Assembly: GCA_016649995.1 (NCBI GenBank)
Contig: JAENWJ010000015.1
Coordinates: 1-33,627, forward strand
From: Peptostreptococcaceae bacterium
GTDB taxonomy: Bacteria > Bacillota > Clostridia > Peptostreptococcales > BM714
DNA length: 33,627 bases
Reading direction: 5' to 3'
Shown here: positions 1,219 through 16,978 of the stretch, piece by piece
How the letters are laid out: each line of letters starts with the position of its first letter
Numbering within the stretch: the first letter of the stretch is position 1
Notes under the pieces: generated by a model
The model's input: the letters and a program-made list of their open reading frames with translations, nothing else
The model's database searches: none
Told to the model about the DNA's origin: nothing
Program-made: the position numbers and the translations under genes

Positions 1219-1258
1219 AGATAAACAAAAGAGTCCAATTGGACTCTTTTGTTTATCT
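1219..1258. terminator. Bidirectional terminator between comFB and fabZ
   Basis: A perfect 40-bp palindrome: AGATAAACAAAAGAGTCCAA followed immediately by its reverse complement. The T-rich outer arms can serve as the U-tract on both strands. The fabZ stop codon (1253-1255) lies inside it, so it ends both convergent units. Confidence 0.8.
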
Positions 1259-1675
1259 TATTGCAAATGTAAGCTCAGCTTCAACAGCAACCTCGCCATC
1301 TACCCTTGCTATCGCCTGACCAAAACCTATGCTTCCCTTCGACTTGACTATGCGTGTTTCCAATGTCAACGTGTCTCCAGGTATTACTTTTCTTCTAAAT
1401 CTTGCTTTCTTTATTCCCCCAAAATACGCAGTTTTGCCTTTGTTTTCCGGTAGGGACAGTATAGCAACAGCACCAACCTGTGCCAAGGCCTCTATTATAA
1501 GCACGCCTGGCATTACATGCTCGTCGGGAAAATGCCCCTGAAAAAAATATTCGTTGACGGTTACATTCTTTATTCCCTTGGCATATACACCTTCTTCAAT
1601 TTCATTGATTCTATCAATAAGCAAAAACGGATATCGGTGGGGAATAATTTCCATTATTTGGTTTGAATTTAGCAT
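1253..1675 (-). CDS. fabZ: 3-hydroxyacyl-ACP dehydratase FabZ
   Basis: A 140-residue hotdog-fold dehydratase that removes water from 3-hydroxyacyl-ACP to give trans-2-enoyl-ACP, the third step of each elongation cycle. The conserved [11 protein letters not shown] segment (residues 12-22), catalytic His48 in GHFP and catalytic Glu62 in the IEALAQ helix are present. Length is normal for FabZ. It is the last gene of the operon, 11 nt after fabF, and its stop lies in the terminator palindrome. FabZ normally makes no cis double bond, although Enterococcus has a FabZ-like isomerase (FabN); nothing in this short sequence lets me call it FabN. Confidence 0.95.
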
Positions 1676-1685
1676 AGCATTCCTC

Positions 1686-2924
1686 CTACTCGTTCCATTT
1701 TTTAAGAATTATTGATGCGTTGTGCCCTCCAAAACCCAGTGAATTGGAAAGCGCGTATGAAAGCTCCTTCTCGCGTCCCTTGCCGGGAACATAATCAAGG
1801 TCGCATTCGGGATCCGCTTTTAAAAGACCGGCCGTAGCAGGAATAAATCCCTCTTCGAGAGCCTTGATGCAAATAATCGCCTCAATAGCTCCTGCGGCTC
1901 CAAGCATGTGGCCTGTCATTGACTTTGTGGAGCTTACCGGTATATCCCTCGCGGCTTCGCCAAATGTCGTTTTAATTGCCTGCGTTTCAAATTTATCATT
2001 GTAGGGTGTGCTTGTACCGTGTGCGTTGATGTATGATATATCCGAAGGCTTGATTCCCGCTTCTTCTATGGCAAGCTTCATTGCTCTAGCCCCGCCTTCT
2101 CCTCCAGGAGCCGGCGCAGTTATGTGGTGGGCGTCGCATGTGAATCCGTAGCCTACTATTTCTCCGTATATTTTTGCGTTTCGCGCCTTAGCATGTTCCA
2201 GAGTCTCAAGGACCATCATCCCGGATCCCTCGGCCATTACAAATCCATCCCTCTCCACATCAAAAGGTATGGAAGCTCGCGCAGGATCGTTTTTGGTAGA
2301 CAGCGCTGTCATAGCCTCGAATCCGGCTACCCCGAGAAGTGTAACTGCTGCCTCTGTTCCTCCCGCAACTATAATATCGGCATATCCATGCTGCAAATTC
2401 CTGAAAGCCTCTCCAACAGCGTTTGTGCCCGACGCGCACGCCGTCACCACTGTATTGCAAAGCCCTTTTGCTCCCAACGCTATGGCAACGTTTCCAGCCG
2501 CCATGTTTATAATAGACATGGGTATGAAGAAAGGAGATACCCTCTTGGGTCCTCTATTTATTAATTTTCCTGCCTGCTCCTCGATAGTACCGAGGCCTCC
2601 AATACCGGATCCCACTATTACTCCCATTCGTTCCGGATTGTACGGTGATTCTTTAAGCCCAGAGTCTTCAAACGCCTGCTTGGAAGCCGCTATTGCAAAC
2701 TGCGTGTATCTGTCCATTCGCTTGGCTTCCTTCTTGTCAATATATTCAACCGGATCGAATCCTTTGACCTCTCCGGCCACCTTCACCTTTATTTCATCCG
2801 TATTGAAATGGGTTATAAAATCTATTCCCGGCGCAGTTTCTCTTATGCTTTCCCAAAGGCTATCAACATCGTTTCCGATGGGAGATACTGCTCCCATCCC
2901 TGTAATAACAACTCTCTTTTTCAT
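1686..2924 (-). CDS. fabF: Beta-ketoacyl-ACP synthase II FabF
   Basis: A 412-residue condensing enzyme that joins malonyl-ACP to a growing acyl-ACP. The Cys-His-His triad is visible: Cys163 in [10 protein letters not shown], His302 in [12 protein letters not shown] and His339 in TGHMLGAAG, with Lys334 nearby. This matches E. coli FabF almost residue for residue in position. The ATG at 2924 was chosen because the AAGGGGG site (2931-2937) ends 6 nt upstream; another in-frame ATG at 2930 abuts that site directly. It follows fabG by about 11 nt in the operon. In bacteria without FabB, FabF also elongates cis-unsaturated intermediates, which matters for the FabX-like gene at 7590. Confidence 0.95.
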
Positions 2925-2935
2925 ATTCATCCCCC

Positions 2936-3676
2936 TTACATTACCATTCCGCCGTCGACATTAAGCACTTGCCCGGTAACATAGGCAGCCGCATCCGAAA
3001 CTAGAAAAGCAACAGCCTCGGCGATGTCCTCAGGCGAACCCAATCGTCCGAGAGGTATTCCCGAAAGCATTCCTTCTCCCGCTTTTTCAACCAGATCCTT
3101 TGTCATATCCGTTTCAATGAATCCCGGAGCAACCGCGTTTACGGTTATGTTTCTTGCGGCCAGTTCCCTCGCTGCGGATTTTGTCATTCCAATAACTCCG
3201 GCCTTTGATGCCGAATAATTTATCTGTCCCGCGTTTCCTGTCACGCCTACAACCGAAGCCATGTTAACAATCTTTCCGGACCTTTGCTTCATCATAATTT
3301 TAGCGGCATGCTTAATGCAATTATAGCTGCCCTTAAGATTAACGCGTATGACAGAGTCAAAGTCCTCTTCTTTCATTTGAATTATAAGTTTATCCCTGGT
3401 TATTCCGGCATTGTTAACCAATATGTCCAAAGACCCGAATGTATCCTTTGCAATCTTCATCAGTTCTTTGGCCTCATCCGAATTTGAAATATCGCCTTTG
3501 GCTTTTACAGCCTTTATGCCTTCCTTTTCAAGAGCCTCAAGCAATGTGTCCATAGCCTCGTCGTTGCTTCTGTAGTTTAGCACCAGGTTTGCTCCGGCCT
3601 TTCCGAGACGTATTGCCACAGCCTTCCCTATTCCCCTGCTTGCTCCCGTGATTACAGCCGTTTTCCCCTTCAACAT
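2936..3676 (-). CDS. fabG: 3-oxoacyl-ACP reductase FabG
   Basis: A 246-residue short-chain dehydrogenase that reduces 3-ketoacyl-ACP with NADPH. It has the Rossmann TGASRGIG motif at the N-terminus, NNAG (residues 88-91), and the catalytic Ser141, Tyr154 and Lys158 (YSASK). Length and motif positions are typical. Its ATG overlaps the end of fabD by 7 nt, indicating translational coupling. The only upstream purine-rich sequence (ATAAGG) is very close to the start. Confidence 0.95.
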
Positions 3677-4692
3677 GCCTTATCACCTATCTTTACATTT
3701 TTTTTTGTGGTCAAACGGTTAATGCTTCTGATTGTCACATTCATCTTCGGCGAAAGCATTTCTACCGCTTTTTCGAGGGACTTGACATCCTCTATGTTGA
3801 CTATTCTCAATTTCACATTTTCTTTCTTGCCGATTTTCTTTATGAATCCTGTCAGGGTCTTGCCCGGACCTATTTCAACAAAGGTGTCTACTCCGTCGTT
3901 AATCATTCTCTGTATGCTTCTTTCCCATTGAACCGGCTTCATTACCTGGTTTTTGAGTATGTCCTTTATATGGTCCTTGTTTTCTATATAATCCGCGAAA
4001 ACATTGGAGATAAGGGGAATATTTAATTCCTTGAAATCTATATTCTTGAGTTCCTCGGCAAGCCTATCGGCGGCCGGTTTCAGCATTGAGGTATGAAATG
4101 GTGCGCTTACCTTTAATGGAGCTACAAGCTTTGCGCCCTTTTCCATAGCAATAGCAGACGCCCTTTTCACAGCTTCGATTTCCCCGCCTATGACAATCTG
4201 CCCCGGACAATTGAAATTAGCGCATTCAACAATCCCGTACTCCTTGGCTTCATTTACAGCTTCCTGGACTTTTTCCTCGTCAAGGCCTATTATGGCAGCC
4301 ATTGTTCCCTTACCTTCGGGTACGGCCTCCTGCATGTATCTACCGCGTTTCTTTACAAGCTTCACTGCAACCGCGAAGGCAAGTGCTCCCGCTGCCACCA
4401 ATGCCGTATATTCTCCTAGGCTAAGACCGGCTACCACATCGGGTTTAAGCCCCTTTTCCTCCGCAGCCCTAAGTGCGGCCATGCTTGTGGTCAGAACTGC
4501 CGGCTGTGTATTTTCTGTAAGATTAAGTTCCTCTTGGTTTCCTTCGGTTACCATCTTGGTCAAATCCATATCCAAGGCATTATCGGCCTCGTCAAATACA
4601 TCCTTGCTGCTCTTGAATTTTTCTATAAGGTCTTTTCCCATGCCAATGTATTGAGAACCCTGCCCTGAAAATAAAAATCCTATTTTGCCCAT
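3670..4692 (-). CDS. fabD: Malonyl-CoA:ACP transacylase FabD
   Basis: Transfers malonyl from CoA to acyl carrier protein, supplying the extender unit. GQGSQ near the N-terminus, nucleophile Ser91 in GLSLGEY, Arg117, catalytic His200 in APFHTSM and the EIGPGKTL motif are all visible. The residue before the nucleophile loop is Leu (GLSLG rather than GHSLG). The protein has 340 residues, about 30 more than usual, because of a basic C-terminal tail that reaches into fabG. A strong AGGAGG lies upstream of the ATG. It follows fabK by about 12 nt. Confidence 0.93.
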   Translation of the reverse strand: MGKIGFLFSGQGSQYIGMGKDLIEKFKSSKDVFDEADNALDMDLTKMVTEGNQEELNLTENTQPAVLTTSMAALRAAEEKGLKPDVVAGLSLGEYTALVAAGALAFAVAVKLVKKRGRYMQEAVPEGKGTMAAIIGLDEEKVQEAVNEAKEYGIVECANFNCPGQIVIGGEIEAVKRASAIAMEKGAKLVAPLKVSAPFHTSMLKPAADRLAEELKNIDFKELNIPLISNVFADYIENKDHIKDILKNQVMKPVQWERSIQRMINDGVDTFVEIGPGKTLTGFIKKIGKKENVKLRIVNIEDVKSLEKAVEMLSPKMNVTIRSINRLTTKKNVKIGDKAC

Positions 4693-4704
4693 GTAGATTA
4701 CCTC

Positions 4705-5649
4705 CTAAATGTTTAAATCCTTTGCATCATCAAGGAGATTCTTAAGCTCTCCAAACATCTCCTCAATTATTTCCAAGGCCGTCTGCTCGCGTTTTACGAG
4801 TCCGGCAATCTGTCCGCTCATGATAGAGCCCATGGACACATCCCCCAGGCAGGCAGCTTTGTGCAAGGCTCCCCTCCCGAGTTCTTCGTATTTTTCCGCA
4901 GGAGCAAACTCTTTATCCATCTTCTTGTACATCCTTGCAAGCTTGTTCTTTAGAACACGAACCGGGTGTCCCGTCGATCTTCCAGTCACAAGTGTGTCTA
5001 TGTCCTTGGCTTCTAGTATTTTCTTCTTATAGTTCTCATGGACATTGCATTCCCTCGCCACTAGAAAACGAGTTCCAACCTGAACACCTGAAGCCCCCAT
5101 CATGAATGCAGCTGCAATTCCTCTTCCGTCGGCAATTCCCCCGGCAGCTACAACCGGAATATTAACAGCATCCACAACCTGGGGCAAAAGACACATTGTG
5201 GTCAGCTCACCTATATGTCCGCCCGCCTCTGTCCCCTCTGCAATTAGTGCGTCAACACCTGTGGATTCCATTCGCCTGGCCAATCCTACCGAAGGCACTA
5301 CAGGAATTATCGTAACATCGTTTTCACGCCATCTTTTGATGTATTTTCCAGGGTTTCCGGCTCCGGTAACTATGACCTTAACCTTTTCCTCCCATACAAC
5401 CTCGGCCACCTCTTCTACAAAGGGACTAAGGAGCATGACGTTAACCCCGAAGGGTTTATCCGTCAGGGTTTTCGCTTTTCTTATTTCTTTCTTTACCCAG
5501 TCACCGGGGGCGTTCCCCGCGGCTATTATCCCCAATCCTCCAGCGTTTGAAACGGCCGCAGCCAGTTCCGCGTCTGAAATCCAAGCCATTCCTCCCTGGA
5601 TTATAGGGTACTCTATTCCAAGCAAATCCTTGAATTTTTTCTTTGCCAT
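4705..5649 (-). CDS. fabK: FMN-dependent enoyl-ACP reductase II FabK
   Basis: A 314-residue TIM-barrel flavoprotein that reduces trans-2-enoyl-ACP, closing the elongation cycle in place of FabI. Visible features are the N-terminal PIIQGGMAW segment, VTGAGNP, catalytic His145 in EAGGHIGE, and a phosphate-binding C-terminal half (GASGVQVGTRF). The ATG at 5649 has GGGGAGG 5 nt upstream; a TTG one codon earlier is less likely. Its position between acpP and fabD is the same as in streptococcal fab clusters. It lacks the C-terminal cysteine motif of the paralogue at 7590, which argues for different chemistry in the two proteins. Confidence 0.93.
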   Translation of the reverse strand: MAKKKFKDLLGIEYPIIQGGMAWISDAELAAAVSNAGGLGIIAAGNAPGDWVKKEIRKAKTLTDKPFGVNVMLLSPFVEEVAEVVWEEKVKVIVTGAGNPGKYIKRWRENDVTIIPVVPSVGLARRMESTGVDALIAEGTEAGGHIGELTTMCLLPQVVDAVNIPVVAAGGIADGRGIAAAFMMGASGVQVGTRFLVARECNVHENYKKKILEAKDIDTLVTGRSTGHPVRVLKNKLARMYKKMDKEFAPAEKYEELGRGALHKAACLGDVSMGSIMSGQIAGLVKREQTALEIIEEMFGELKNLLDDAKDLNI

Positions 5650-5685
5650 CAATACCTCCCCTTTCCAGAGTATGCCTCTGATGGA

Positions 5686-5913
5686 TTATTTATTCGCTTC
5701 AACGTAACGGACAATGTCACCGACCGTCAGCATCTTTTCAGCAACTTCTTCTTCAACCTCGATTTCGAATGCCTCTTCTACAGCCATTACAACTTGTACT
5801 ACGTCCAATGAATCAGCATCCAAATCGTCCTTTATATTGCTTTCCATGGAAACCTCTTCTGCCTCCACGCCTAATTCTTCAACTAAAATTTCCTTCACCT
5901 TTTCAAATACCAT
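5686..5913 (-). CDS. acpP: Acyl carrier protein
   Basis: A 75-residue, strongly acidic four-helix protein with the DADSLD motif. Ser35 is the expected 4'-phosphopantetheine site. It carries acyl chains between all enzymes of this operon. GGAGG precedes the ATG with normal spacing. It sits between fabH and fabK, as in other fabT-type clusters. Confidence 0.96.
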
Positions 5914-5943
5914 TATAATTTCCTCCTTGTCTTTTTATCAGTT

Positions 5944-6924
5944 TTAATTTAATTGCCATTCAACGAGTGCAGCGCCCCATGTGAGCCCTCCTCCGAAACC
6001 TACAAAAATAAGCTTGTCGCCTTTTTCAAGCAAACCCTTTTTAGCCATTTCATTCAATGCTATAGGTATGCTGGCAGACGATGTATTTCCGAATCTTTCA
6101 AGATTAACATAGAATTTTTCTTTGTCGAATTTCATTTTATTTGCAACATACTCGAACATCCTGTTATTCGCCTGATGGGGTACAATATACTTGACATCAC
6201 CCAAATTGATCCCCATACCATCTAGTACATCATTCAAGGCTTTCCTCATTATACGAGTAGCGAATTTGAAAATTTCCTTGCCATTCATTTGAAGATAGTT
6301 CTCGCCTGTTTCCGGCGTTTCCATGAAAGGATTCGAAACATTTCTCGATTTTGAAATCAGATTGCCTTCTATATCGCCCTTTGAACCGATGACAGTATTA
6401 AGGATGCCGGTCTTTTGCGAAGCCTCTAGTACAACAGCGCCCGCTCCGTCTCCGAAGAGCACGCAGGTGTTCCTATCTTTCCAGTCTATTACCTTGGACA
6501 TGACTTCTGAACTGACCACCAAAATTTTCTTGGCCTTCCCAGCCTTTATAAAACTATCCGCCACATCAAGCCCGAAAAGAAATCCCGAGCAGGCTGCCGA
6601 TATATCAAATGCCACTGCATTCTTCGCTCCAAGCCGCCTTTGCACCAAACAAGCCGTAGCAGGCGTAAAATAATCCGGTGTCAGTGTGGAAAGAATAATC
6701 ATATCCAATTCCTCCGGCTTGATGCCTGCGTTTTCAAGCGCCGCTTCCGATGCCTTGAGAGCCAAATCCGAAGTATTTTCCCCTGTAGTTATTCTTCTTT
6801 CCTTTATACCTGTTCGAGTTCTAATCCACTCATCATTTGTTTCGACAAGCTCGGACAACATATGGTTGTCTACAATTTTTTCAGGAACATAAGTGCCCGT
6901 GCCAATAATGCTGGCGTAATTCAT
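5944..6924 (-). CDS. fabH: Beta-ketoacyl-ACP synthase III FabH
   Basis: A 326-residue enzyme that condenses a short acyl-CoA with malonyl-ACP to start fatty-acid synthesis. The triad Cys112 (AACSGFLFG), His250 (PHQANNRM) and Asn280 (GNTSSAS) is intact. The ATG at 6924 with AAAGGGG upstream is preferred over a TTG one codon earlier. It lies 14 nt after the MarR-family regulator, so regulator and enzymes share a transcript. Confidence 0.95.
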   Translation of the reverse strand: MNYASIIGTGTYVPEKIVDNHMLSELVETNDEWIRTRTGIKERRITTGENTSDLALKASEAALENAGIKPEELDMIILSTLTPDYFTPATACLVQRRLGAKNAVAFDISAACSGFLFGLDVADSFIKAGKAKKILVVSSEVMSKVIDWKDRNTCVLFGDGAGAVVLEASQKTGILNTVIGSKGDIEGNLISKSRNVSNPFMETPETGENYLQMNGKEIFKFATRIMRKALNDVLDGMGINLGDVKYIVPHQANNRMFEYVANKMKFDKEKFYVNLERFGNTSSASIPIALNEMAKKGLLEKGDKLIFVGFGGGLTWGAALVEWQLN

Positions 6925-6938
6925 CAAGTCACCCCTTT

Positions 6939-7388
6939 CTATTTGTCAGCTTGATATTTCTTAGTAAAATACTTGTTAAGATTTTCAAGAGCATTTATTA
7001 GCTGTTTGTCATCTTGGATTTTCAAATCCTCCATAACCCCATTCACCATGCCTTCGTGGAAATTGGCATGCATAAGATATGCTTCCTTGCCTTTGTTCGT
7101 CAGCTTTATCTCGACGATTCGTCGATCCTCCTGGTTCTTGTTTCTCTCTACATAATCCTTCTTTACAAGCCTGTTGATGGATGTAGTCAAGGTACCTATT
7201 GTTATACCCAGTTTTTTTGCCACCGTGCTCATCGATTGGGGCTTCCCCAAACCGATTTGCTCAATTGTATGCATCTCCGTCATGGACAAAAGGCAACCCA
7301 TGCGCTTCAATTCCTTTTCCTCTATATTGAGTATATTTCGAAATAGCTCAACCAGTATCTTATTTAAGACCTTTGCGGTATCTGACAC
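6939..7388 (-). CDS. MarR-family regulator, FabT-like
   Basis: A 149-residue winged-helix protein with MarR features: dimerisation helices at both ends, a recognition region (STVAKKLGITIGTLTTSINR) and a wing ending RRIVEIKLTNKGKEAY. It starts at a GTG with GGGAGG upstream. It is the first gene of the fab operon, the position of FabT in streptococci. Streptococcal FabT represses fab genes using long-chain acyl-ACP as corepressor (family knowledge). Three copies of an ACTTTGA-N3-TCAAAGT-type palindrome in the upstream region resemble the FabT site as I remember it, so autoregulation and control of both transcription units is likely. The ligand is inferred. Confidence 0.85.
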   Translation of the reverse strand: MSDTAKVLNKILVELFRNILNIEEKELKRMGCLLSMTEMHTIEQIGLGKPQSMSTVAKKLGITIGTLTTSINRLVKKDYVERNKNQEDRRIVEIKLTNKGKEAYLMHANFHEGMVNGVMEDLKIQDDKQLINALENLNKYFTKKYQADK

Positions 7389-7427: not shown

Positions 7428-7444
7428 GCTTTGACTTTCAAAAC
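7428..7444. promoter_or_regulatory. FabT-like operator, site 1
   Basis: GCTTTGACTTTCAAAAC: a slightly degenerate copy of the palindrome at 7451. Its centre is 23 bp away, about two helical turns, and it lies downstream of the leftward promoter. It could support cooperative repression of the fab operon. Confidence 0.6.
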
Positions 7445-7450
7445 ATTATT

Positions 7451-7467
7451 ACTTTGACTTTCAAAGT
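7451..7467. promoter_or_regulatory. FabT-like operator, site 2 (on the fab operon promoter)
   Basis: ACTTTGACTTTCAAAGT: 7-bp arms perfectly symmetric around a 3-bp spacer. It overlaps the -10 element of the leftward promoter (7465-7470) and the expected start point. Confidence 0.75.
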
Positions 7468-7514: not shown

Positions 7515-7543
7515 TTGACAGAAAAACACCTTTTGATTATACT
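7515..7543 (+). promoter_or_regulatory. Promoter of the FabX-like gene
   Basis: TTGACA (7515-7520) and TATACT (7538-7543) with exactly 17 bp between them, a near-consensus sigma-A promoter. Operator site 3 overlaps the -10, giving the same geometry as the divergent fab promoter. Confidence 0.8.
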
Positions 7544-7557
7544 TTGAATATCAAAGC
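7541..7557. promoter_or_regulatory. FabT-like operator, site 3 (on the FabX-like gene promoter)
   Basis: ACTTTGAATATCAAAGC: the same palindrome as site 2 with one arm-end mismatch. It covers the end of the -10 and the start point of the rightward promoter, and links the gene at 7590 to the regulator of the fab operon. Confidence 0.7.
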
Positions 7558-7589: not shown

Positions 7590-8663
7590 ATGAAACTTAA
7601 GCCATTGATAATAGATGATTTAAAAGCCCGCGTACCTATAATACAAGGCGGCATGGGCATAGGGGTTTCCCTATCATCCCTGGCCTCGGCTGTTTCCAAG
7701 GCCGGCGGGGTAGGAGTTATTTCCGCTGCGCAGGTAGGATTCCGCGAACCCGATTTTGAAAAGGACAACGACGCCGCCAATCTTAGGGGACTCAAAAAGG
7801 AAATCCAAAAAGCGAGAGTCTTAAGCCCTCAGGGCATATTAGGCGTCAATATAATGACGGCGACGAACAACTATGCGGAGCAAGTAAAAGTATGCGTTGA
7901 GGAAAAAGCAGATCTGATTATATCAGGAGCTGGACTTCCCACAAACCTACCTGGCTTGGTGAAGGATTCGGCTACAAAAATTGCCCCCATAGTATCCTCT
8001 GCAAAGGGCGCAAAAGTAATAACGAAGCTTTGGACAAAAAAATACAACTATCTTCCTGATCTAATAGTTGTTGAGGGCCCAAAGGCAGGCGGTCATCTCG
8101 GCTTCAGCCCGGAAGTGCTTTCAAACCCGGTATTGCCAGACCTAAAAACCATAGTGTCGGAGGTCATCGAAATACTAAAGCCTTTCGAAGAAGCCTATGG
8201 CAAAAGCATCCCCGTAATAGCCGCAGGGGGCATATACACCGGCAAGGATATCGCCGAATTCATAAAACTCGGAGCAGCGGGAGTACAGATGGCAACCCGT
8301 TTCGTAGCCACAGATGAATGCGATGCGCACATAAACTTCAAGAAAGCATATATAAATGCGCAAGATGACACAATCAAGATAGTGGTAAGCCCGCTCGGAA
8401 TGCCTGGAAGAGCCATATACAACAACCATGTAAAAACAGTTGAGGCAACCGGAAAGAAAATCAAAAAATGCTTCGGATGTCTCAAAGCATGCAACCCTGC
8501 TACAGCGCCCTACTGCATAACCGAAGCACTTGTAAAAGCTGTAGAGGGCGATGTGAATGACGGACTTGTCTTCATAGGAAGCACAGGATGCCTTGTTGAC
8601 AAGATTGTTCCGGTTGAAGAACTCATGGACGAACTAACGACCGAAGCCGAAGCCAATCTATAA
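7590..8663 (+). CDS. FabX-like flavoenzyme (FabK/nitronate monooxygenase superfamily) with a four-Cys motif
   Basis: A 357-residue TIM-barrel flavoprotein. Its N-terminus (VPIIQGGMGIGVSLSSLA), GAGLPTNLP, the His169 loop (EGPKAGGHLGF) and GVQMATRF place it in the FMN-binding FabK/nitronate monooxygenase superfamily. Unlike FabK, it has Cys294, Cys297, Cys301 and Cys309 (C-x2-C-x3-C-x7-C), suited to a [4Fe-4S] cluster. From memory, Helicobacter FabX (about 363 residues) shares the GAGLPTNxP, EGPxxGGHxGF, TRFxxTxECDA and SPxGxPxRAI stretches and a cysteine cluster in the same place. FabX oxidises a saturated acyl-ACP and isomerises it to the cis-3-enoyl form, the branch to unsaturated fatty acids. 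AAAGGAG precedes the ATG. Operator and promoter layout tie it to the fab operon. Substrate and activity are inferred; a generic nitronate monooxygenase is the alternative. Confidence 0.8.
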   Translation: MKLKPLIIDDLKARVPIIQGGMGIGVSLSSLASAVSKAGGVGVISAAQVGFREPDFEKDNDAANLRGLKKEIQKARVLSPQGILGVNIMTATNNYAEQVKVCVEEKADLIISGAGLPTNLPGLVKDSATKIAPIVSSAKGAKVITKLWTKKYNYLPDLIVVEGPKAGGHLGFSPEVLSNPVLPDLKTIVSEVIEILKPFEEAYGKSIPVIAAGGIYTGKDIAEFIKLGAAGVQMATRFVATDECDAHINFKKAYINAQDDTIKIVVSPLGMPGRAIYNNHVKTVEATGKKIKKCFGCLKACNPATAPYCITEALVKAVEGDVNDGLVFIGSTGCLVDKIVPVEELMDELTTEAEANL

Positions 8664-8927: not shown

Positions 8928-8948
8928 TCATTTAGAAAACCGAATATT

Positions 8949-9060
8949 TTCTTCAGGGTTGGGTGCAATTCCCTACCGGCGGTAAAGCCCGCTAGCCGAG
9001 AAATCGGTTGATTCGGTGAAATTCCGAAGCCGACAGTTAAAGTCTGGATGAGAGAAGAAA
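8949..9060 (+). promoter_or_regulatory. FMN riboswitch (RFN element)
   Basis: The conserved RFN core is directly readable: CAGGGTTGGGTGCAATTCCC, then ACCGGCGGTAAAGCCCGC, a variable hairpin (AGCCGAGAAATCGGTTG), GAAATTCCGAAGCCGACAG, and AGTCTGGATGAGAGAAGA. Closing strands TTCTTC (from 8949) and GAAGAA (to 9060) complete the junction. It binds flavin mononucleotide and should lower ribU expression when FMN is plentiful. Confidence 0.95.
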
Positions 9061-9076
9061 ACTATAACGATACTTA

Positions 9077-9124: not shown

Positions 9125-9709
9125 ATGAAAAGAGCCAGTTCAACCAACAAAATGGTCAAAACATCCGTTTTGTCCGTCATCGCATTCGTTTTGATGCTTA
9201 TCGAATTGCCAGTGCCATTATTTCCAGTCTTTCTCAAGCTCGACCTGAGCGACTTGCCAGCACTTGTAGGTGGCTTTGCAATGGGACCCGCTGCCGGTGT
9301 TGCCATCGAACTCATTAAAAACTTTCTACATTTCATCACAAGGACCTCTACAGCCGGTGTAGGTGAGCTTGCAAACTTCATAGTGGGCGCTGCCCTTGTA
9401 TTTCCAGCCAGCTACATCTACAAGATGAAGAAATCGAAAACCCAGGCTCTCAAGGCATTAGCAGTCGGAACAGTTTCGATGGCCATTGCAGGAGGACTGG
9501 CAAACTACTTCATATTGCTTCCGTTTTACGCTAAAGTAATGCCCCTTGATATAATAATTGAAAAGGGCAATGCCGCAAACGCGGCAATCCATGACATGAA
9601 AACACTAGTACTGTATGCCATAGTTCCCTTCAATCTGATAAAGGGAGCCGTAATCTCTGCAATCACACTGTTGATTTACAAAAAGATATCTGTCATACTT
9701 CACAAATAG
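9125..9709 (+). CDS. ribU: Riboflavin ECF transporter S component RibU
   Basis: A 194-residue hydrophobic protein with about six membrane segments. It has the RibU-type KLDLSDLPALVGGFAMGP segment and a conserved KNFLHF loop, typical of the substrate-binding subunit of energy-coupling-factor transporters. It takes up riboflavin together with the shared EcfA/EcfA'/EcfT module, which is encoded elsewhere. GGGAGG precedes the ATG at normal spacing. The FMN riboswitch upstream confirms the ligand class. Neighbouring FabK and the FabX-like protein, and PyrD further on, are FMN enzymes, but no shared control is visible. Confidence 0.93.
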   Translation: MKRASSTNKMVKTSVLSVIAFVLMLIELPVPLFPVFLKLDLSDLPALVGGFAMGPAAGVAIELIKNFLHFITRTSTAGVGELANFIVGAALVFPASYIYKMKKSKTQALKALAVGTVSMAIAGGLANYFILLPFYAKVMPLDIIIEKGNAANAAIHDMKTLVLYAIVPFNLIKGAVISAITLLIYKKISVILHK

Positions 9710-16135: not shown

Positions 16136-16978
16136 TCATGCCTCGTATGCAACAATGCCTATCAGTCCAGGCCCCGTATAAACCCCCATGACCGGTCCAA
16201 GCTGGGCAAAAAAACTTTCCTCAACGTTTCCCATTTCGCGTATCTTTTCCATTAGCTTCATCGCCTCTTCATCTGCGTTTGCGCTTATTACAGCCAGATT
16301 AAATGACTTTCCGGCGTATTTTTCCTTCATGAGTTCGAACATCCTGTTTATGGATTTCTTTCTCCCTCTTACTTTTGAAATTGTATAATAGATTCCATTG
16401 TCATTAATGCCGATGATAGGCTTTATCCCAAGAATCTCTCCAATTGTTCCCTCTACCAAACCTATGCGTCCACCCAGTTTAAGATATTCAAGGGTCTTGA
16501 CCACGAATGTCAAATATATGTTATCCCTAGTTTTAAGGATTTTCTCCATGATTTTATCCAAATCATTGCTCTTTTCTCTTTCCTTTGCCGCCTCAATCGA
16601 CAAGAATCCAAGACCGAATGACAATGCTTTTGAATCAACCACTTCTATGTTCAAACCATCATAGTTTTCTGCCACCTGGCGAACCATGTTGTATGTGCCA
16701 CTAAGTCCCGATGAAATAAGTGATATGACCACATCCGTATATTCTTCAGACTTAAGGCGGTCGAGAAGCCTAATTACATCTCCCGGAAGAGGCAGGGAGC
16801 TCTTTGGCACCTCCTTGTCCAAATTTTCATATATCTGCTTAGGTGTTATATCCAACCGGTCTCTGTATTCCCTTTCCTTGTAAATAACTCTTAACGAAAG
16901 CATTTCAATATTATACGCCTTCATCTGTTCGGCGGAAAGATCGCTGGTCGAATCCGTAACAATAGCTATTTTTTTCAT
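16136..16978 (-). CDS. DegV family fatty-acid-binding protein
   Basis: A 280-residue cytosolic protein. The N-terminal AIVTDSTSDLS motif, ISSGLSGTYN near residue 90, the VVDSKALSFGLG segment, and the C-terminal ANADEEA and GPGLIG stretches are typical. DegV/FakB proteins bind one fatty acid and, where FakA is present, present it for phosphorylation so it can enter phospholipids. No fakA is in the window, so the pathway link is inferred. AAAGGAG precedes the ATG with good spacing. It has its own promoter and terminator. Confidence 0.92.
   Translation of the reverse strand: MKKIAIVTDSTSDLSAEQMKAYNIEMLSLRVIYKEREYRDRLDITPKQIYENLDKEVPKSSLPLPGDVIRLLDRLKSEEYTDVVISLISSGLSGTYNMVRQVAENYDGLNIEVVDSKALSFGLGFLSIEAAKEREKSNDLDKIMEKILKTRDNIYLTFVVKTLEYLKLGGRIGLVEGTIGEILGIKPIIGINDNGIYYTISKVRGRKKSINRMFELMKEKYAGKSFNLAVISANADEEAMKLMEKIREMGNVEESFFAQLGPVMGVYTGPGLIGIVAYEA

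What the first reader, a model, noticed from the sequence alone, without database searches (positions are those of the whole stretch)
7590..8663. A FabX-like [Fe-S]/FMN enzyme as the candidate unsaturated-fatty-acid enzyme of a Firmicute
Seen: the protein at 7590 belongs to the FabK/nitronate monooxygenase superfamily but has four clustered cysteines (294, 297, 301, 309) that the FabK at 4705 lacks, plus His169 in an EGPxxGGH loop. Known (from memory): Helicobacter FabX is a superfamily member with FMN and a [4Fe-4S] cluster that oxidises saturated acyl-ACP and isomerises it to a cis-3-enoyl-ACP. Several other sequence stretches also match my recollection of FabX. Inference: this gene supplies the cis double bond in an organism whose fab cluster has no fabA, fabM or fabN. 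Many such Firmicute genes are probably labelled nitronate monooxygenase.
Basis: partly seen in the sequence, partly recalled or inferred. Interest (0 to 1): 0.85.

Follow-up and report, generated by a model that had tools for sequence, protein, structure and literature searches.

The report
FabX-type unsaturated-fatty-acid enzyme in Clostridia
A gene that standard annotation would call "nitronate monooxygenase" is really a relative of Helicobacter FabX, the enzyme that puts the double bond into membrane fats; it shares a regulatory switch with the fatty-acid genes and is a strong candidate for how many oxygen-avoiding clostridia make unsaturated fats.

Summary
Observation confirmed. The 357-aa protein has Cys294/297/301/309 and His169 in EGPKAGGH; the neighbouring FabK lacks the cysteines. 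Nearest solved relative is H. pylori FabX (1e-66; FabK 2e-31; classical NMO about 1e-9). In a 52-protein tree all FabX-like proteins separate from FabK+NMO at 100/100. The AlphaFold model (pLDDT 94) matches FabX best (TM 0.87-0.89). The four cysteines align with FabX's proven [4Fe-4S] ligands and are kept in 52 of 52 complete relatives, with a slightly different spacing (CxxCxxxCx7C). New here: fabX and the fabT-fabH-acpP-fabK-D-G-F-fabZ cluster diverge from twin promoter-like sites, each overlapped by the genome's only exact copies of a FabT-like palindrome. In relatives fabX often lies next to or inside the fab operon. Of 111 order-level genomes with the gene, 109 have FabZ and only 3 have a second FabZ-type gene. 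Lineages lacking FabK have FabI, so it is not the missing enoyl reductase. The idea is not new (Neisseria UfaA; F. nucleatum FabX): a new member of a known kind, bearing on the open clostridial UFA question. Activity and electron acceptor are untested; H. pylori FabX needs O2, so an anaerobe must differ.

The parts
7590..8663 (+). fabX/ufaA-like gene, 357 aa, FMN plus predicted [4Fe-4S] protein of the NMO superfamily
8469..8516 (+). codons of Cys294, Cys297, Cys301 and Cys309, predicted [4Fe-4S] ligands (CxxCxxxCx7C)
   Evidence: aligned with FabX C300/C304/C308/C320; invariant in 52 of 52 (ligands from PMC8626469)
8073..8096 (+). EGPKAGGH loop with catalytic His169 (FabX E175...H182)
7515..7543 (+). 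promoter-like site of fabX, TTGACA-17-TATACT, 11 of 12
   Evidence: consensus match; shuffles give about as many sites of the minimum quality
7542..7556 (+). FabT-like operator CTTTGAATATCAAAG overlapping the -10 of fabX
   Evidence: one of only two exact sites in the 1.84 Mb genome
7465..7493 (-). divergent promoter-like site of the fab operon, TTGACA-17-TATACT, 11 of 12
7452..7466 (-). FabT-like operator of the fab operon, placed on its -10 exactly as the fabX one
7429..7443 (.). third, one-mismatch FabT-like palindrome
6939..7388 (-). fabT-like MarR-family regulator
   Evidence: NCBIfam TransRegFabT best hit, 139 bits, below its cut-off of 200
5944..6927 (-). fabH
5686..5913 (-). acpP, acyl carrier protein (DSLD motif)
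4705..5652 (-). fabK, enoyl-ACP reductase
3670..4692 (-). fabD
2936..3676 (-). fabG
1686..2930 (-). fabF
1253..1675 (-). fabZ

Best explanation
The gene encodes the FabX/UfaA enzyme of this clostridial lineage. It binds C8-C10 acyl-ACP, uses FMN and His169 to take H from C2/C3 with a [4Fe-4S] cluster (C294/297/301/309) at the end of the acyl tunnel as second redox centre, and releases cis-3-decenoyl-ACP, which FabF elongates to unsaturated fatty acids. FabT represses it together with the rest of the fab genes. Shown here: homology, conserved cofactor and catalytic residues, fold, genomic linkage and the shared palindrome. Inferred: binding of the cluster, the reaction, the product and FabT binding. 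Because the organism and most relatives appear to be anaerobes, the electrons cannot normally go to O2 as in H. pylori; an unknown acceptor (ferredoxin or flavodoxin, or the next enoyl-ACP) is the likeliest difference.
For: FabX is the best PDB match by sequence and fold (TM 0.87-0.89 for the top three vs 0.70-0.76 for FabK). Tree split from FabK+NMO 100/100. FMN, catalytic and Fe-S residues conserved in complete relatives. Exact FabT-like palindromes only in the fabT-fabX gap, on both divergent promoter-like sites, and upstream of fabX in 10 of 54 loci against 0.007 expected per 300 nt. fabX beside or inside the fab operon in Clostridium celatum, Faecalicoccus and several families of the order; recurrent neighbours are mainly fab/acc genes. 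109 of 111 carriers have FabZ (p=2e-7) and only 3 have a second FabZ-type gene. No desaturase of either Pfam family in the genome. In one genome (G140) fabX has decayed together with the fab operon. Literature: FabX mechanism (PMC8626469), anaerobic UFA role of Neisseria NGO1024 (cited in PMC11300592), clostridial enzyme unknown (PMC2700279).
Against: No enzyme or lipid data; it is not known that this organism makes UFAs. A FabX tunnel loop (F74, Y75) is missing and ACP contact R160 is Leu. 24 order genomes have FabZ but no FabX-like gene, four of them with cyclopropane synthase, so other UFA routes may exist. Cyclopropane synthase is not clearly enriched among carriers and is absent from the own genome. 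A second FabZ-like gene exists.
Confidence: 0.75

Rival explanations
1. Redox-neutral variant: the protein is a trans-2/cis-3 decenoyl-ACP isomerase acting on the FabZ product, FMN and the cluster cycling without net electron transfer, which would remove the need for an acceptor in an anaerobe. (A sub-case of the same biological role.)
For: FabZ is present in 109 of 111 carriers, so the trans-2 substrate is available; no recurrent electron-transfer partner is encoded beside the gene; FabX isomerisation itself needs no O2 (PMC8626469).
Against: All redox residues of FabX are kept; H. pylori FabX starts from the saturated acyl-ACP. No direct evidence.
Confidence: 0.3
2. It is a second enoyl-ACP reductase (reverse direction) rather than a UFA enzyme.
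For: Same superfamily as FabK; overexpressed F. nucleatum FabX raises the MIC of a FabK inhibitor from 0.4 to 3.1 ug/mL (PMC11091888).
Against: The own genome has FabK; 11 of 14 long-type carriers without FabK have FabI, and the other three are incomplete, lack FabZ, or carry a truncated copy; [quoted passage not shown]
Confidence: 0.08
3. The double bond is made by the second FabZ-like protein (contig C21, FabN-like) or the crotonase there (FabM-like), and the FabX-like protein does something else.
For: C21:10956-11396 is a 146-aa FabZ-like protein; C21:12840-13634 is a crotonase.
Against: Both lie in a cluster of 2-hydroxyacyl-CoA dehydratase, thiolase, 3-hydroxyacyl-CoA dehydrogenase and CoA-transferase genes (by inspection); the crotonase is nearest short-chain-enoyl-CoA hydratase; the second FabZ is not detected in the sister species and a second copy occurs in only 3 of 111 carriers.
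Confidence: 0.08
4. An ordinary nitronate monooxygenase detoxifying propionate-3-nitronate or nitroalkanes.
For: Only Pfam NMO and such labels cover it.
Against: Tree, fold, Fe-S cysteines, fab linkage and FabT-like palindrome all argue otherwise.
Confidence: 0.02

Closest known systems
FabX of Helicobacter pylori (HP0773; PDB 7e1q, 9lt5)
   Same: Fold, FMN site, His182, four Fe-S cysteines, acyl-tunnel residues I321, L325 and F339, K152 and K159 of the ACP helix; about 42% identity over aligned columns
   Different: CxxC instead of CxxxC and a shorter Fe-S loop; F74/Y75 loop missing; R160 is Leu and R164 is Lys; FabT-like operator and fab-operon linkage; host lineage anaerobic while FabX needs O2
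UfaA of Neisseria gonorrhoeae (NGO1024) and betaproteobacterial relatives such as Cupriavidus necator pHG1
   Same: Same side of the tree; four cysteines kept in the C. necator protein; Neisseria protein reported essential for anaerobic UFA synthesis (as cited in PMC11300592)
   Different: Distant (36% in C. necator); Neisseria sequence and paper were not available here
FabX of Fusobacterium nucleatum (C4N14_08920)
   Same: FabX homologue in an anaerobe that also has FabK (PMC11091888)
   Different: 50.8% identical to Hp FabX according to that paper; UFA role there also inferred, not shown; sequence not compared here
FabK (C. difficile 7l00, S. pneumoniae 2z6i, window 4705)
   Same: NMO-superfamily TIM barrel, FMN, His
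   Different: No Fe-S cysteines; separate clade; enoyl reductase with NAD(P)H

Membership tests
FabX/UfaA | Closest to FabX in sequence and tree, apart from FabK and NMO | tested here: met
FabX/UfaA | Four cysteines for a [4Fe-4S] cluster in the C-terminal domain | tested here: met
   aligned and invariant, slightly different spacing; binding of a cluster itself not testable
FabX/UfaA | FMN site and catalytic His (N99, E175, H182, Q240, T243, S273) | tested here: met
   N87, E162, H169, Q233, T236, S267
FabX/UfaA | FabX fold with the Fe-S subdomain | tested here: met
   model pLDDT 94; best PDB matches are FabX, TM 0.87-0.89
FabX/UfaA | Positively charged ACP-binding helix alpha7 (K152, K159, R160, R164, and T130) | tested here: inconclusive
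   K139, K146, T118 kept, R164 is Lys151, R160 is Leu147
FabX/UfaA | Dehydrogenase/isomerase activity on C8-C10 acyl-ACP | not testable with these tools
   needs enzyme assay
FabX/UfaA | Electron acceptor (O2 in H. pylori) | not testable with these tools
   acceptor unknown; no recurrent partner gene
FabK | TIGR03151 above cut-off | tested here: not met
   155 of 453 bits
Classical nitronate monooxygenase | Groups with NMO proteins | tested here: not met

The most novel reading that the evidence does not exclude
The clostridial FabX is an O2-independent [4Fe-4S]/FMN enzyme that makes cis-3-decenoyl-ACP by a redox-neutral or ferredoxin-coupled route, and is the long-missing UFA enzyme of the Clostridia in which the anaerobic pathway was first proposed.
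Probability: 0.4. Interest if true: 0.75.

Novelty: new member of a known kind. Interest (0 to 1): 0.52.

Why it matters
The anaerobic UFA pathway was proposed from Clostridium, yet a 2009 study still called the clostridial enzyme "novel and unknown" (PMC2700279). A FabX-like gene sharing a FabT-like operator with the fab operon, with relatives in Clostridium, in kin of C. difficile and in Faecalicoccus, gives a specific gene to test, explains many "nitronate monooxygenase" labels, and raises the question of how a FabX works without oxygen. It also bears on the published claim that FabX inhibitors would spare most human-associated bacteria.

Tried and rejected
Cyclopropane-synthase presence as a proxy for UFA: 24 of 148 genomes have a strong hit, 20 of them carry FabX-like against about three quarters of all genomes, and the own genome has none; uninformative. 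Search for a conserved electron-transfer neighbour: none recurrent. Other shared palindromes upstream of the loci without a FabT-like box: no common motif. Placing the Fe-S site from coordinates: model coordinates are not exposed, so the geometry rests on alignment and fold match. A wrong-frame Variovorax sequence spoiled the first tree and was removed. Isabella & Clark 2011 and Bi et al. 2016 are not held. Species name not determined; the order looks like Peptostreptococcales because one sampled genome is nearly identical to Acetoanaerobium noterae in this protein and another has a FabK 96% identical to that of C. difficile.

Full report
What is there. Window 7590-8663 (+) encodes a 357-aa protein. 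It is a member of the NMO superfamily (Pfam PF03060, 183 bits) but scores 155 against a cut-off of 453 for FabK, which the neighbour at 4705-5652 passes with 503. No NCBIfam model reaches its cut-off on it.

FabX relationship. The closest solved structure by sequence is H. pylori FabX (E 1.2e-66), followed at a distance by FabK (2.5e-31) and classical NMO (about 1e-9). Identity to FabX is about 42% of aligned columns. A 52-protein ML tree puts all long FabX-like proteins, H. pylori FabX and the C. necator relative on one side of a 100/100 branch, and FabK plus NMO on the other. The order of branching inside the FabX side is poorly resolved, so I do not claim that the clostridial proteins form one clade apart from Helicobacter. 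An AlphaFold model (15 sequences, pLDDT 94.2, pTM 0.93) matches FabX entries best (TM by query length 0.87-0.89 for the top three; FabK 0.70-0.76).

Residues. The published [4Fe-4S] ligands of FabX are C300, C304, C308 and C320 (PMC8626469). They align with C294, C297, C301 and C309, which are invariant in 52 of 52 complete relatives; the catalytic His182 aligns with His169 (53 of 53). FabX residues N99, E175, Q240, T243 and S273 are kept as N87, E162, Q233, T236 and S267, and tunnel residues I321, L325 and F339 as I310, L314 and F328. ACP-contact residues K152, K159 and T130 are kept, R164 is Lys and R160 is Leu; the F74/Y75 loop is absent. The first cysteine spacing (CxxC) and the loop before the last cysteine are shorter than in Helicobacter.

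Regulation. [quoted passage not shown] fabX diverges from fabT. The palindrome CTTTGANNNTCAAAG has exactly two perfect copies in the 1.84 Mb genome, both in this gap (7452-7466, 7542-7556), with a one-mismatch copy at 7429-7443. Each perfect copy overlaps by two bases the -10 hexamer of a TTGACA-17-TATACT promoter-like site, one facing fabX and one facing the fab operon. FabT is known to bind palindromes in fab promoters of Enterococcus, including that of the fabI/fabO operon (PMC9083066); that this palindrome is the FabT site is my inference from its resemblance to the streptococcal FabT box (memory) and its position. The core TTTGANNNTCAAA occurs within 300 nt upstream of fabX in 10 of 54 loci, among them several Clostridium species and the Acetoanaerobium-like genome, against 0.007 expected per 300 nt from the rest of the loci (a few loci are near relatives).

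Genomic linkage. fabX is divergent from fabH in Clostridium celatum, inside the operon between fabK and fabD in Faecalicoccus and in one small-genome family of the order, and next to fabT or fab genes in several more. Neighbours recurring in four or more of 35 loci are mainly fab and acc genes, plus a few unrelated ones; no electron carrier recurs. Among 148 genomes of the order, 111 have a FabX-like match of at least 150 bits (two of them, G086 and G133, are the short type described under Noticed in passing); 109 of these have FabZ, against 24 of 37 non-carriers (Fisher p 2e-7), and only three carriers have a second FabZ-type gene. In 18 carriers fabX is within 20 kb of fabZ. Reading side by side, 14 long-type carriers have no FabK match; 11 of them have FabI and the other three are incomplete, lack FabZ, or have a truncated copy. 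So the protein is additional to the enoyl reductase. In G140 fabX survives only as a 40-residue fragment next to equally decayed fab genes.

Rest of the genome. No fatty-acid desaturase of either Pfam family. Two FabZ-type genes: the one in the cluster and C21:10956-11396. The latter, and the only crotonase, lie among 2-hydroxyacyl-CoA dehydratase, activase, thiolase, 3-hydroxyacyl-CoA dehydrogenase and CoA-transferase genes (named by inspection; crotonase and FabZ), and the second FabZ was not found in the sister species. A FabN- or FabM-like role is therefore unlikely, not excluded.

Mechanism. H. pylori FabX dehydrogenates decanoyl-ACP and isomerises it, passing electrons to O2 via FMN and the cluster (PMC8626469). 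The clostridial enzyme has the same machinery, so the same chemistry is the best guess, but the final acceptor must differ in an anaerobe; the same puzzle was noted for Neisseria NGO1024 (PMC11300592). A redox-neutral isomerase acting on the FabZ product is the most interesting alternative and would need no acceptor. The F. nucleatum finding that excess FabX partly offsets FabK inhibition (PMC11091888) would fit chemistry that can run in the reducing direction under anaerobic conditions; that is my reading, not the authors'.

Novelty. A UfaA/FabX route in anaerobes lacking FabA has been proposed (title of Isabella & Clark 2011, cited in PMC11300592), FabX homologues were counted in 7 phyla (PMC8626469) and one studied in F. 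nucleatum (PMC11091888). I found no paper in the held library assigning it in Clostridia, where the enzyme was called unknown in 2009 (PMC2700279); subscription papers were not searchable. The points that may be new are the shared FabT-like operators, the fab-operon linkage, the order-wide co-occurrence and the distinct cysteine spacing.

Noticed in passing
window 8945-9063 and 9125-9709 (+): FMN riboswitch (Rfam RF00050, 121.6 bits) upstream of an ECF transporter substrate component, probably riboflavin uptake (RibU); it follows fabX but looks like its own unit.
   Followed up: partly
G000 contig C21:5570-19190 (locus L009): Two copies of a 2-hydroxyacyl-CoA dehydratase-like gene set with activases, plus thiolase, 3-hydroxyacyl-CoA dehydrogenase, crotonase, MaoC-like hydratase and CoA-transferase; one copy carries an adjoining FabZ paralogue of unclear role.
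   Followed up: partly
L084-L089 (genomes G086, G133, G230, G211, G231, G296): A short (about 320 aa) FabX-like subfamily keeps four cysteines (CxxCxxxCx4C) and the His but lacks the ACP-binding helix region; not beside fab genes. Probably an Fe-S NMO with a different substrate, and a warning that the cysteines alone do not prove FabX function.
   Followed up: partly
L077 (Cupriavidus necator pHG1), 3242-7140: A FabX/UfaA relative labelled nitronate monooxygenase lies next to two U32 peptidase-family genes and an SCP2-domain gene (resembling ubiU/ubiV/ubiT for O2-independent ubiquinone synthesis, from memory), near nosZ and an Fnr-type regulator: an anaerobic-respiration context.
   Followed up: no
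L098 (G140:C1:1018000-1037000): A genome in which fabX and the adjacent fab operon are decayed to fragments, suggesting loss of de novo fatty acid synthesis.
   Followed up: partly
window 16136-16978 (-): DegV-family protein (FakB-type fatty-acid-binding), hinting that exogenous fatty acids may feed the acyl-ACP pool that FabT senses.
   Followed up: no
G000:C73:3270-3284 and C10:4627-4641: One-mismatch copies of the FabT-like palindrome elsewhere in the genome; nearby genes not examined, and such sites may well be chance (the reversed control pattern also gives matches).
   Followed up: no
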